A stretch of 64,000 bases of DNA from Phycisphaerae bacterium (GTDB taxonomy: Bacteria > Planctomycetota > Phycisphaerae > Sedimentisphaerales > Anaerobacaceae). The stretch is from NCBI GenBank assembly GCA_030615025.1, contig JAUXAB010000014.1, positions 1 through 64,000 on the forward strand. The letters run 5' to 3'. Below the pieces are notes generated by a model. That model worked only from the letters and a program-made list of their open reading frames with translations. It ran no database searches and had not been told where the DNA came from. This document shows positions 32,929-41,224 of this stretch, piece by piece. The position numbers were made by a program, and so were the translations under genes. Position 1 is the first letter of the stretch. Each line of letters opens with the position of its first letter.

Positions 32929-33486
32929 ATGACATTAAAATCGCAAGAAAGCTGCGACGAAGCGTTGGTTGAAGCTGCCCAAAGCGGCCATTTGGAAAGC
33001 TTCGGCGCTCTTTACGAGCGGTATCACAGCCCTATGATGGCATTAGCTTATTCTATGCTCGGCGACAGAGACCTTGCCGAGGATGCCGCACAGGAGACGT
33101 TTGCGATAGCCTGCCGCGACCTGCTAAGTCTGAGGCACAGTGATAAATTTGCCGCCTGGCTGGCCAGTATATGTAGAAATGTTGCCCGGAGCAATCTTCG
33201 GTCGAAAGGTAAATCTGCGGCTGTGAATTTTCAGGAATGCGTAGAAAATCAAAATGACGAAGATAATCGCCGGGATGCGATTAGGGAAGCTGTTTGGAAA
33301 CTGAGGCCTGCCGAGAGAGAGTTGATAGTTTTGCGTTACTACGATGGATTTTCTCAGGCACAAATTTCCAACGTTCTTGATATTTCGCCTCAGGCAGTCA
33401 ATGGCCGACTTTTCAGAGCAAAGCGAAAGATTGCAAAGTACTTAAGACGCAGCGGTTTCACGGGAGAAAATTATGGAACGGTTTGA
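32929..33486 (+). CDS. ECF sigma factor (cassette 1)
   Basis: DRDLAEDAAQETFAIACRDL (region 2) and LRPAERELIVLRYYDGFSQAQISNVLDISPQAVNGRLFRAKRKI (region 4). Confidence 0.93.
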   Translation: MTLKSQESCDEALVEAAQSGHLESFGALYERYHSPMMALAYSMLGDRDLAEDAAQETFAIACRDLLSLRHSDKFAAWLASICRNVARSNLRSKGKSAAVNFQECVENQNDEDNRRDAIREAVWKLRPAERELIVLRYYDGFSQAQISNVLDISPQAVNGRLFRAKRKIAKYLRRSGFTGENYGTV

Positions 33487-34750
33487 AGATAAAAACTGGC
33501 TTGATGAAGCACTTACCGAAGCGATTTGTTCGGAAGGTAAGAAGCCGGACTTCGAGAAGTGGAAACAGGAACACCCGGAAGCCGTTGAAATGTTGGCCTC
33601 GCGGGCGGATGGGAAACCATCAGCACCCACACGCCCGCTCAATATAGGGAGAATAATTATGAAGAGTCCAATCACAAAATTAGCCGCTGCGGCGGTGATA
33701 ATTATAGGTGTGCTTGTATCAATACATCTTTGGGACAGGTCAATACCCTCAGCATCCGCGGCTCAGTTGCTTCAGGACGCGATTGATGCGGTATCCGACG
33801 TGTGGTCGGTGTATATGAAGGCCCGAATGCGTACACTTCCAAGAGACAACTTCTCTAACATTGGATTAAACTACGACTTTGTTGATATCGAGATGTGGAA
33901 ACATACTAACACAAATGGACAGATGCAATGGCGTGTGGAAAAATCCGGGCGTGTACTTCTTATGGACGGCCACAAAACTATAATGCTCATACGGCCGAAT
34001 TACGGCGTCTTAAACAAACGCCCCTTACCCCTGGGCTGTTACGACAGTTGGTCGGGCCGCTTATTGAACGTGCACGATTTGTTGGACAATGAGTTACAAA
34101 ACGCAAAGAATAATCCCGACCGTGAAGTCTGTCTCAGGCACGAGGAAGTTGAAGGAACGGATAAAATCGTACTTGAGGTCAATGTAACAACATCCGTTCC
34201 TGAGAATGACTATCTTAGAAATAAATTTATCCAGGAATCCGACCATGTGAAGGTATATCAGTTTGATGCGAAGACAAAATTACTGGAAGCTCTTCAGGTG
34301 TATGTACACACGACAGATGAGGATGTTCTGATTTTTGAAGTAACTGACATCGAATACAATATAGAGATTGACGATAGCGTATTTACGCTGGATTTTCCGG
34401 AAGATATGATTTGGAGAAGAGAGCCGGAGATACTGCCGGATAACAAGCGATATGAAAAAATGACCCCGACGGAGGCAGCAGAAACATTCTTCAAAGCCTG
34501 TGCAGAAGAAAACTGGGAAGAAGTGTTGAAGTTCTGGACGGCCTCACGTATTGACGAACGCTTGAAGGCCTACCTCGGCGGTCTTGAGATTATATCCATA
34601 GGTGAGCCATTTCAATCCAAAGGCTACAGTCGCAAAGGCTGGCTTGTTCCTTATGAGATTCGTCTTAAATCCGGTGGTGTCAAGAAACATAACTTAGCAA
34701 TACGAAAAGACAATGACGCCAACCGTTTTGTAGTTGATGGTGGAATTTAA
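33473..34750 (+). CDS. Membrane protein with N-terminal cytoplasmic segment, TM and extracytoplasmic LolA-like domain; putative anti-sigma/sensor (cassette 1)
   Basis: Overlaps sigma gene by 14 nt; NIGRIIMKSPITKLAAAAVIIIGVLV; NIEIDDSVFTLDFPEDM. Confidence 0.75.
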   Translation: MERFEDKNWLDEALTEAICSEGKKPDFEKWKQEHPEAVEMLASRADGKPSAPTRPLNIGRIIMKSPITKLAAAAVIIIGVLVSIHLWDRSIPSASAAQLLQDAIDAVSDVWSVYMKARMRTLPRDNFSNIGLNYDFVDIEMWKHTNTNGQMQWRVEKSGRVLLMDGHKTIMLIRPNYGVLNKRPLPLGCYDSWSGRLLNVHDLLDNELQNAKNNPDREVCLRHEEVEGTDKIVLEVNVTTSVPENDYLRNKFIQESDHVKVYQFDAKTKLLEALQVYVHTTDEDVLIFEVTDIEYNIEIDDSVFTLDFPEDMIWRREPEILPDNKRYEKMTPTEAAETFFKACAEENWEEVLKFWTASRIDERLKAYLGGLEIISIGEPFQSKGYSRKGWLVPYEIRLKSGGVKKHNLAIRKDNDANRFVVDGGI

Positions 34751-34789
34751 CGAAGCAACCTGATTATCTTATTAACCTTGTGTCCCAAA

Positions 34790-34822
34790 AAGGCTGAGCT
34801 TTTTGCTCGGCCTTTTTTTTTT
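34790..34822 (+). terminator. Intrinsic terminator after cassette 1
   Basis: AAGGCTGAGC-TTTTT-GCTCGGCCTT followed by a T run. Confidence 0.8.
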
Positions 34823-34954
34823 GTGGTTTTTTCATGTGAATAATGGCATTTTGGAGTAAATGGCGTCGAATTTCGATAAAAATTTATACCCAAAACAGTA
34901 ACTCAGTTGTGTTATAAGTGACGGTCATCCTGGGCCTGGGAAAGTAACTGACTG

Positions 34955-39227: not shown

Positions 39228-39374
39228 ACGCGCTTTTGTGGACAGGTCCATATTTTGGAGCATATAATTTCAAAAAGTATAAGGAAGATCGGTTTTTTTT
39301 ATACTAAAATGAGCACTACAATCGTGATATTAATGACGAACGATCGTTCTTTAGATTAAGCCGGCCGGTCAAAG

Positions 39375-39917
39375 ATGATAGAAGACGAATTGCTTAAATT
39401 GAGATTTAAGTGCGGCAGCAGTGAAGCATTGCGGCGCATCTATGAAAAGTACTTAAACAGTTTGCTAACGTTAGCGATGGCTCTTTTAAATGATGTGAAT
39501 GCGGCCGAAGACGTTGTACACGATGTTTTTGTCTCCTTTGCGAAATCTACAGGGGACTTCAAGCTGCGTGGAAGCCTTAAAAGCTATCTTGCAACCTGCG
39601 TTATTAATCGTGCACGTGACCGAATCCGAACAAATAAGCGACAGCCTGTCAGGTTAGCTGAATCAGATTTGATGATGTCAGAGTCAAATGGGCCGGAAGA
39701 ATCGGTTATATTCAACGAAGAAACACGCCGATTGAACCAGGCGATAGCCAAGCTTCCAGATGAGCAGAGAGAAGTAATCATCCTGCGTCTGAATGGCCAA
39801 ATGAAATTCAAAGAAATAGCCAGGCTGCAAGGCGTCTCAGCCAATACGATTCAGGGCCGGTATCGGTACGGTCTGAATAAATTGCGGTCAATCTTAAATG
39901 GTAAGGTGGAAGAATGA
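39375..39917 (+). CDS. ECF sigma factor (cassette 4)
   Basis: DVNAAEDVVHDVFVSFAKS; LPDEQREVIILRLNGQMKFKEIARLQGVSANTIQGRYRYGLNKLRSIL. Confidence 0.92.
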   Translation: MIEDELLKLRFKCGSSEALRRIYEKYLNSLLTLAMALLNDVNAAEDVVHDVFVSFAKSTGDFKLRGSLKSYLATCVINRARDRIRTNKRQPVRLAESDLMMSESNGPEESVIFNEETRRLNQAIAKLPDEQREVIILRLNGQMKFKEIARLQGVSANTIQGRYRYGLNKLRSILNGKVEE

Positions 39918-41164
39918 AACCTACAGATAATATTGAAAAAGCAGTCAAAAAGTTAAATTTCACTGCCAGCGCAAAATTGCATGACCGAATTTGGTGTGAT
40001 GTTCGGGACGCACAAAAAGAACAGGAAAAAAGCAAATCGGCTTTAGCTGGGCCGAATATAAGGAGAACAATTATGAAAAGTCGAATCACAAAATTAGCCG
40101 CTGCGGCGGTGATAATTATAGCCATACTGTTTGGGCTAAAATTTACCGGTGGACCGGATGTGGCAAATGTGGCCTGGGGTGACGTTATCAGGCAAACTGC
40201 TCAGGTTGAATATGTGCATGTATATTGGTTAAAAAGTCGGGGTGACACTCTTTTCAGACAGTTTGAGGCCTGGTATGCGCACGGGAAACTCGTTAGGCGT
40301 GGAGATAAGGGGGGCATGACTTACGACGATGGCCAAACACAACAATCATTTGATGAGCGGGGAAGGCGAATTGGTAAAAAGCCATCCCTTTTTGCCGGAG
40401 GAAAGACTTTTTTTGAATTATTTAGCGCAGATTTATTGTCAGATAAGAATGAGCAGTTAAGCCAACTGACGCCTATCAATGTGGGCGATGACTTTCTCAT
40501 ATACGAAGTTGACCCGCCCCCCGATTGGAATGGAAGTGAGTGGTTAGAAAAGATATCTGTTACAGTGGGCAAAAATTCTCTTTTACCTGTTCAGATGAAA
40601 ATCTTTGAAAAAGACTCGGATGATTATGACCTGGTTATGTTTGATTACGAAGCTCCTGAGAAACCGCCGGAATTTTTTGAGCCCCCAATGGCTGTATCAG
40701 CTAATGGACAAAGCGAGGTCGTGCTGGATGGCGAAGAGGTGGTTATTAATATTGAGGGATCACCGGGGATAAAACAGGCGATAGTACGTTTACACGCCAA
40801 GTATGACGGACCTGCTGACCAGTTTCCGTTGGACTATATTCATAGTGACCGTCTTGACCCGAACTTTGGCAGGGCAGTGTCTGAGAAATTGCGCAAAAAA
40901 TATGAAAAGAAGGGCGGGCCGATATTCAGGCTGCAAGTGTCCTTTGTAACAGATGAAGGGTACCGGAGCGGAACAAATGATATTATAGCAACGCGGTTGA
41001 ATGAAGCGGGGCAATGTGGCGTAGGTTCCAGTGCCGGAGGTGTTGATGATTGGCCGGACGGGAAGTATCGCAACATTAGATTTTCGCCTTTGGTAAAATC
41101 TACTGACAGAGAGGATACTTATATTGTTGAAATGCGCTGCTGGATCAAAACCAAGGATGATTGA
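39914..41164 (+). CDS. Membrane protein, putative anti-sigma/sensor (cassette 4)
   Basis: ATGA overlap; GPNIRRTIMKSRITKLAAAAVIIIAILFGL; paralogous to cassette 3. Confidence 0.75.
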   Translation: MKPTDNIEKAVKKLNFTASAKLHDRIWCDVRDAQKEQEKSKSALAGPNIRRTIMKSRITKLAAAAVIIIAILFGLKFTGGPDVANVAWGDVIRQTAQVEYVHVYWLKSRGDTLFRQFEAWYAHGKLVRRGDKGGMTYDDGQTQQSFDERGRRIGKKPSLFAGGKTFFELFSADLLSDKNEQLSQLTPINVGDDFLIYEVDPPPDWNGSEWLEKISVTVGKNSLLPVQMKIFEKDSDDYDLVMFDYEAPEKPPEFFEPPMAVSANGQSEVVLDGEEVVINIEGSPGIKQAIVRLHAKYDGPADQFPLDYIHSDRLDPNFGRAVSEKLRKKYEKKGGPIFRLQVSFVTDEGYRSGTNDIIATRLNEAGQCGVGSSAGGVDDWPDGKYRNIRFSPLVKSTDREDTYIVEMRCWIKTKDD

Positions 41165-41195
41165 TTTTTAGCGGTCTCTGAATTTGCAGATTTCA

Positions 41196-41224
41196 GGCCG
41201 GGCTGGTTTGGCTCGGCCTTTTTT
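41196..41224 (+). terminator. Intrinsic terminator after cassette 4
   Basis: GGCCGGGCTGGTTTGGCTCGGCCTTTTTT. Confidence 0.85.

What the first reader, a model, noticed from the sequence alone, without database searches (positions are those of the whole stretch)
32929..41224. Four consecutive ECF sigma factor / membrane-partner cassettes
Seen directly: four sigma-membrane gene pairs in a row on + strand (32929/33473, 34955/35497, 37457/37999, 39375/39914), each translationally overlapping and each closed by an intrinsic terminator; the last three terminators are the same sequence. Cassettes 2-4 are paralogous, and 3 and 4 are the closest. Established: ECF sigmas are commonly encoded with a membrane anti-sigma. 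Inference: local amplification has produced parallel sigma/anti-sigma channels with divergent extracytoplasmic LolA-like domains, suggesting an expanding envelope-signal sensing array.
Basis: partly seen in the sequence, partly recalled or inferred. Interest (0 to 1): 0.85.

Follow-up and report, generated by a model that had tools for sequence, protein, structure and literature searches.

The report
Anti-sigma genes with built-in second start
Four neighbouring pairs of gene-switch proteins (a sigma factor plus a membrane partner that restrains it) are real, and each partner gene carries a conserved second start signal exactly where its membrane segment begins, so one gene probably makes both a restraining sensor and a sensor without the restraint.

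Summary
The four sigma/membrane-partner cassettes are real, at the stated coordinates. The genome is a planctomycete MAG of the Sedimentisphaerales/Phycisphaerae group. The extracytoplasmic parts of the two partners modelled look RseB/LolA-like. Two interpretations fail. (1) The sigmas are not products of local amplification: their monophyly is rejected (p-AU 4e-5), cassette 3's sigma is 91% identical to one in another genome but only 55% identical to its neighbour, and the shared terminator also follows cassettes on other contigs. (2) The partners do not co-diverge as whole proteins: the ~50-aa N-terminus follows the sigma, while the sensor shuffles independently, with the junction at the membrane segment. 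The main finding lies at that junction. Partner genes carry GGAG-N6-8-ATG, a Shine-Dalgarno plus start codon, inside the reading frame just before the membrane helix. GGAG occurs at 99/108 motif ATGs but at 20/922 other in-frame ATGs. The encoded residue changes W/R/G 23 times on the tree while bases GG stay. In some copies GGAG moves to another codon phase. Long partners keep the ATG (96/104); short ones mostly lack it (4/19). Most likely each gene makes a full anti-sigma sensor and a nested sensor lacking the anti-sigma domain. No protein evidence exists.

The parts
32929..33486 (+). ECF sigma factor, cassette 1 (distant class, ~20-25% identical to the others)
   Evidence: Pfam Sigma70_r2 1.6e-13, Sigma70_r4_2 7.8e-14
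33473..34750 (+). Partner 1: N-terminal cytosolic segment, one membrane helix, RseB/LolA-like extracytoplasmic domain
   Evidence: pLDDT 78; best PDB hits E. coli RseB
33648..33651 (+). internal Shine-Dalgarno GGAG (codons GGG AGA)
33659..34750 (+). predicted nested product of partner 1, starting at the membrane helix
   Evidence: ATG at 33659; conservation
34787..34817 (+). intrinsic terminator 1
34955..35500 (+). ECF sigma factor, cassette 2
35497..37257 (+). Partner 2 (586 aa)
   Evidence: first sensor domain also found behind other N-termini
35621..35649 (+). 12-bp hairpin ending just upstream of the internal SD (weaker versions in cassettes 3 and 4), SD left unpaired
35651..35654 (+). internal Shine-Dalgarno GGAG (AGG AGA)
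35662..37257 (+). predicted nested product of partner 2
   Evidence: ATG at 35662
37280..37306 (+). intrinsic terminator 2
37457..38002 (+). ECF sigma factor, cassette 3 (91% identical to the L108 sigma)
37999..39168 (+). Partner 3 (389 aa)
   Evidence: sensor 62% identical to partner 4
38162..38165 (+). internal Shine-Dalgarno GGAG
38173..39168 (+). predicted nested product of partner 3
   Evidence: ATG at 38173
39197..39223 (+). intrinsic terminator 3, same stem as terminator 2
39375..39917 (+). ECF sigma factor, cassette 4
39914..41164 (+). Partner 4 (416 aa)
   Evidence: pLDDT 58; best PDB hits MucB, LolA, RseB
40062..40065 (+). internal Shine-Dalgarno GGAG
40073..41164 (+). predicted nested product of partner 4
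   Evidence: ATG at 40073
41195..41219 (+). intrinsic terminator 4, same stem as terminator 2

Best explanation
Each cassette is an ECF sigma factor plus a single-pass membrane anti-sigma whose extracytoplasmic part is an RseB/LolA-like hydrophobic-ligand sensor. The partner gene has two in-frame starts. The first overlaps the sigma stop codon (ATGA in cassettes 2-4) and gives the full protein: a short cytosolic anti-sigma segment of about 50 aa, the membrane helix and the sensor. The second, GGAG-N7-ATG, sits exactly at the start of the membrane helix and gives the same membrane-anchored (or exported) sensor without the anti-sigma segment. Inferred working: the full form holds the sigma at the membrane until an envelope signal acting on the sensor, probably with proteolysis, frees it. 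The nested form binds the same ligand or protease, or pairs with the full form, without holding the sigma, and so sets the threshold; it stands in for the separate RseB of the E. coli RseA/RseB pair. Because the sensor carries its own start and membrane segment, it is a portable unit, and sensors have been swapped between different sigma/anti-sigma heads at this junction. Shown by sequence: cassette anatomy, RseB/LolA fold match, conserved internal SD and ATG, head/sensor shuffling. Inferred: that the internal start is used, that the N-terminus binds the sigma, and what the short form does.
For: Internal start: in 156 pairs found by sigma similarity alone, GGAG lies in -15..-6 of 99/108 motif ATGs and of 20/922 other in-frame ATGs of the same genes. 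Given the residues encoded, codon usage predicts 26 of 100 with GG|AG; 99 are seen. On the sigma tree positions -11..-8 change 3, 5, 2 and 6 times, against 10-46 for the other wobble positions, while the residue they encode (W/R/G) changes 23 times, nearly all through the first codon base. Two own-genome copies keep GGAG in another codon phase (TTG GAG TAT ATC ATG; GGA GAT ACC ATT ATG) and so encode acidic residues, with similar phase-shifted forms in other genomes. The region is less structured than at other in-frame ATGs, also when AT-matched. The anti-SD CCTCCTTT is present in relatives' 16S. The ATG is kept in 96/104 long partners and 4/19 short ones. Sensor: RseB, MucB and LolA are the top PDB folds. 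Shuffling.
Against: No protein, ribosome-profiling or transcript data. A few copies keep the SD but not ATG (C130 ATA; L120 ACG; L158 ATA; L140 and G030 CTA). Joint loss of SD and start rests on few independent events: the tree-based pair test has only 3 supported pairs and is not significant. The sequences are related, so Fisher p-values overstate. Some wobble sites downstream (GCC..GCG GCG) are also biased, so nucleotide constraint is not confined to the start signal. The frame was open in every confidently placed copy, so no unfused copy proves the start. The model of partner 4 is weak (pLDDT 58).
Confidence: 0.72

Rival explanations
1. Relic of gene fusion: the sensor was once a separate gene with its own SD and ATG, anti-sigma heads were fused to it in frame, and the old start is no longer used.
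For: Sensors shuffle between heads at exactly this point; a free sensor gene would need such a start.
Against: An unused start should decay at synonymous sites. Wobble position -10 changes 5 times while other wobble positions change 10-46 times over 86 sequences; residues beside it turn over freely.
Confidence: 0.12
2. Protein-level constraint: an Arg/Trp-rich juxtamembrane motif before the helix happens to look like an SD.
For: The commonest residues are W-R, R-R and G-R next to the membrane, as the positive-inside rule would favour.
Against: W, R and G are unlike, Ser and Asn also occur, and Arg at codon -3 is written AGA/AGG in every copy listed although these are 37% of Arg codons. Phase-shifted copies encode L-E-Y-I or G-D-T-I with GGAG intact.
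Confidence: 0.04
3. The GGAG slows the ribosome to aid membrane insertion, or the DNA block is kept as a landing site for recombination between cassettes; no second protein is made.
For: The block lies at the membrane segment and at the swap junction; downstream Ala codons also show DNA bias.
Against: A recombination block should be conserved evenly; here wobble sites at +14 and +23 are free (39 and 41 changes) while -11..-8 are nearly fixed. Pausing does not need an ATG at fixed start spacing.
Confidence: 0.1
4. One reading: a young local tandem amplification of sigma/anti-sigma pairs diversifying whole partners.
For: Tandem order, shared terminators, sensors 3 and 4 62% identical.
Against: Clade rejected (p-AU 4.2e-5); closer relatives in other species for each sigma; same terminator on other contigs; sensor uncorrelated with sigma.
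Confidence: 0.03

Closest known systems
E. coli RpoE-RseA-RseB (and AlgU-MucA-MucB)
   Same: ECF sigma, single-pass membrane anti-sigma, LolA-like two-domain extracytoplasmic regulator; RseB and MucB are among the top PDB folds for partners 1 and 4.
   Different: Here anti-sigma and RseB-like sensor are one polypeptide, with a nested start that would give the sensor separately; no sequence-level match to RseA or RseB; no DegS-type protease tested.
Class II anti-sigma domains (CnrY)
   Same: Short (~50 aa) segment of two predicted helices ahead of one membrane helix; the sigma profile matches CnrH among other ECFs.
   Different: No sequence match to CnrY; helix prediction is low-confidence.
LolA / LprG-type lipid carriers
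   Same: Fold of the extracytoplasmic domain; one relative weakly matches Pfam LolA_like.
   Different: Membrane-tethered and coupled to a sigma factor.
Bacterial genes with nested in-frame starts (for example CheA, ClpB; from general knowledge)
   Same: One frame, two starts, N-terminally shortened second product.
   Different: Here it would recur across a large paralogous family of anti-sigma genes and remove exactly the presumed sigma-binding part.

Membership tests
ECF (group IV) sigma factor | sigma2 and sigma4 domains only, ~180 aa | tested here: met
   Pfam Sigma70_r2 and Sigma70_r4_2 above cut-off in all four
Class I anti-sigma domain (RseA/RsiW/ChrR type) | recognisable ASDI or zinc-finger (Hx3Cx2C) domain | tested here: not met
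   No Pfam or NCBIfam anti-sigma hit for the four window partners; a C120 relative (L029:6097) has weak anti-sigma matches below cut-off
Class II anti-sigma domain (CnrY type) | two-helix cytosolic peptide embracing the sigma | tested here: inconclusive
   Two helices predicted (residues 3-13, 20-39) at pLDDT ~40; no sequence match
Anti-sigma factor | binds and inhibits its sigma | not testable with these tools
   Only indirect: translational overlap and sigma/N-terminus co-divergence
RseB/MucB | LolA-like fold plus small C-terminal domain | tested here: met
   Foldseek E 1.5e-7 to RseB, 7.4e-7 to MucB; global TM-scores are low (0.2-0.3 of query), so this is a fold resemblance
RseB/MucB | separate secreted protein encoded by its own gene | tested here: not met
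   Sensor is fused to the anti-sigma in one frame; only the nested start would give a separate form
Nested in-frame gene | conserved SD and start codon inside the frame | tested here: met
Nested in-frame gene | second protein detected | not testable with these tools
   no expression data available
Recent local tandem amplification | paralogs form one clade to the exclusion of other species | tested here: not met
   p-AU 4.2e-5

The most novel reading that the evidence does not exclude
A whole bacterial order uses a shared genetic device: anti-sigma genes with a built-in second start that makes a sensor without the anti-sigma part, so each signalling channel produces its own competitor or its own RseB, and the same spot is the joint at which sensors are exchanged between channels.
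Probability: 0.45. Interest if true: 0.8.

Novelty: new variant of a known kind. Interest (0 to 1): 0.64.

Why it matters
If the internal start is used, many ECF signalling channels in these little-studied bacteria make two proteins from one gene, with opposite effects expected on the sigma factor. This is invisible in ordinary annotation and directly testable. It would also explain how new sensor/switch pairings arise: the sensor is a self-contained translational unit that can be moved behind any anti-sigma head. The GGAG-ATG signature gives a simple rule for finding such genes.

Tried and rejected
Local amplification of the sigmas: rejected. Separate, unfused sensor genes as proof of the start: none found; one apparent case is a contig end. 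Recent gene conversion as sole cause of DNA conservation: rejected by site-specific rates. Downstream GCCGCNGCGGC hairpin: wobble pair 26-32 shows no clear compensatory change. Tree-paired test of SD loss with start loss: too few independent events. Named anti-sigma family for the N-terminus: no match. Known RNA element: none in Rfam. Distribution outside the order: an exact coding pattern found no copy outside the window's own genome in 294 genomes drawn across the phylum; this strict pattern also misses divergent copies.
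Full report
OBSERVATION. The four sigma/partner pairs are present as described. All four sigmas carry sigma2 and sigma4 domains. Partners overlap the sigma stop by ATGA in cassettes 2-4 and by 14 nt in cassette 1. Terminator-like hairpins follow each partner. The genome is a MAG of 3.92 Mb in 132 contigs, 79% complete. Named relatives found through the sigma are all Planctomycetota, many labelled Sedimentisphaerales, Phycisphaerae or Anaerohalosphaeraceae.

THE ARRAY IS NOT A LOCAL AMPLIFICATION OF SIGMAS. 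The genome holds nine close sigmas (50% identity or more to cassette 4, counting it) on C9, C22, C40, C74 and C120, plus 13 distant ones. C120 has a run of five pairs; other species have runs of three to five. Cassette 2's sigma is 78-81% identical to relatives in other genomes, cassette 3's 91% (L108), cassette 4's 72% (L085), yet they are 55-57% identical to one another. Forcing the three into one clade is rejected (difference in lnL 224, p-AU 4.2e-5). The terminator shared by 2-4 also follows cassettes on C40, C74 and C120.

MODULARITY. Among class-A pairs the sigma tracks the partner's N-terminus (Spearman 0.43) but not the sensor (0.07). The sensor of cassette 1 occurs behind unrelated heads (L094, L113, L084, L137), that of cassette 2 behind a CxxC zinc-finger-type head (L114). 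L108 joins the sigma and N-terminus of cassette 3 (91% and 85%) to the sensor of cassette 4 (86%). The junction is the membrane segment.

THE INTERNAL START. In all four window partners the membrane segment begins at an in-frame ATG preceded by GGAG at -11. In the own genome 22 such sites were collected; 20 have GGAG at -10 to -12. The usual frame is NGG AGA AYA ATT ATG, encoding R, W or G then R. Two copies keep GGAG in another codon phase (L039: TTG GAG TAT ATC ATG; L041: GGA GAT ACC ATT ATG), so the protein reads L-E-Y-I or G-D-T-I while the DNA signal stays. One copy (C89) has lost both, one (C89) only the SD, one (C130) only the ATG. A search blind to the upstream bases and the start codon found the same signal in most hits in the family, including one GTG (G030:C345), and copies lacking both in G026, G093 and G099.

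To avoid choosing by motif, 156 partners were collected through their sigmas, and 131 could be aligned at the membrane segment. The codon is ATG in 96/104 partners of 230 aa or more and 4/19 complete shorter ones. GGAG lies in -15..-6 of 99/108 motif ATGs against 20/922 other in-frame ATGs in the same genes. Given the residues encoded, codon usage predicts 26 of 100 with GG|AG; 99 are seen. On the sigma tree bases -11 to -8 change 3, 5, 2 and 6 times in 86 sequences, while wobble positions elsewhere in the block change 10-46 times (the lowest, 10, being -7, beside the SD), and the residue at codon -4 changes 23 times, nearly all through its first base. The region is less structured than around other in-frame ATGs, also after matching AT content. 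Relatives' 16S ends in CCTCCTTT. In cassettes 2-4 a hairpin ends just before the SD and leaves it free or nearly so.

Limits: sequences are related, so simple p-values overstate; joint loss of SD and start has only three supported independent pairs; several copies keep the SD without a start codon; Ala codons downstream also show DNA bias without clear compensatory pairing. No expression evidence is available.

SENSOR. AlphaFold2 models of partner 1 (pLDDT 78) and partner 4 (pLDDT 58) match E. coli RseB, MucB and LolA as best PDB folds. Global TM-scores are low, so this is a fold resemblance. The N-terminus is predicted as two short helices, recalling the class II anti-sigma CnrY described in PMC8103513 and PMC7406223, but sequence searches gave no match and confidence there is poor.

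MECHANISM. The full product would be an RseA-RseB fusion: head holds the sigma, sensor reads a hydrophobic envelope ligand. The nested product is the same sensor with the membrane helix but without the head. It could compete for ligand or protease, pair with the full form, or be exported: 73/96 long partners have an AxA-like site 31-44 residues after the internal Met. The overlap at the sigma stop would tie the full form to sigma synthesis, whereas the nested SD would be independent. These functional steps are inference.

KNOWN OR NEW. ECF sigma/anti-sigma pairs, their classification in Planctomycetes (surveys cited in PMC8103513) and LolA/RseB-type regulators are known. Searches of the held library found no description of fused RseB-type sensors with a nested start; subscription papers are mostly missing. 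I rate it a new variant of a known kind.

Noticed in passing
window 43429-44745 (+): Protein with TPR repeats followed by two RNA polymerase alpha C-terminal domains, close to the sigma array; an unusual combination.
   Followed up: no
window 29332-32677 and 41320-43131 (+): The array is flanked by a sulfatase, a DUF4838/GH67-N-terminal protein and a DUF5060/collagen-binding-like protein, suggesting a polysaccharide or glycoprotein breakdown neighbourhood.
   Followed up: partly
L105, L112, L131, L133, L140 (partners of 142-161 aa): A class of short partners with a conserved '...SPxEMMTxxSLxxAYRRGGIE' tail instead of the sensor; most lack the internal ATG and SD.
   Followed up: partly
L029:3320-15412 (C120): Second array of five sigma/partner pairs in the same genome, with mixed head types (one zinc-finger-like) and the same internal start.
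   Followed up: partly
own genome C130:15953: Partner with the internal SD intact but ATA in place of ATG: a natural start-codon variant for comparison.
   Followed up: no
positions +24..+35 after the internal ATG, partners at large: Wobble bias GCC-GCN-GCG-GCG in the membrane helix codons beyond codon usage; no clear compensatory pairing; unexplained.
   Followed up: partly
L137:2137-3816: Partner whose sensor ends in a duplicated C-terminal module (residues 441-560 match the same end part of partner 1 as the stretch before it).
   Followed up: no
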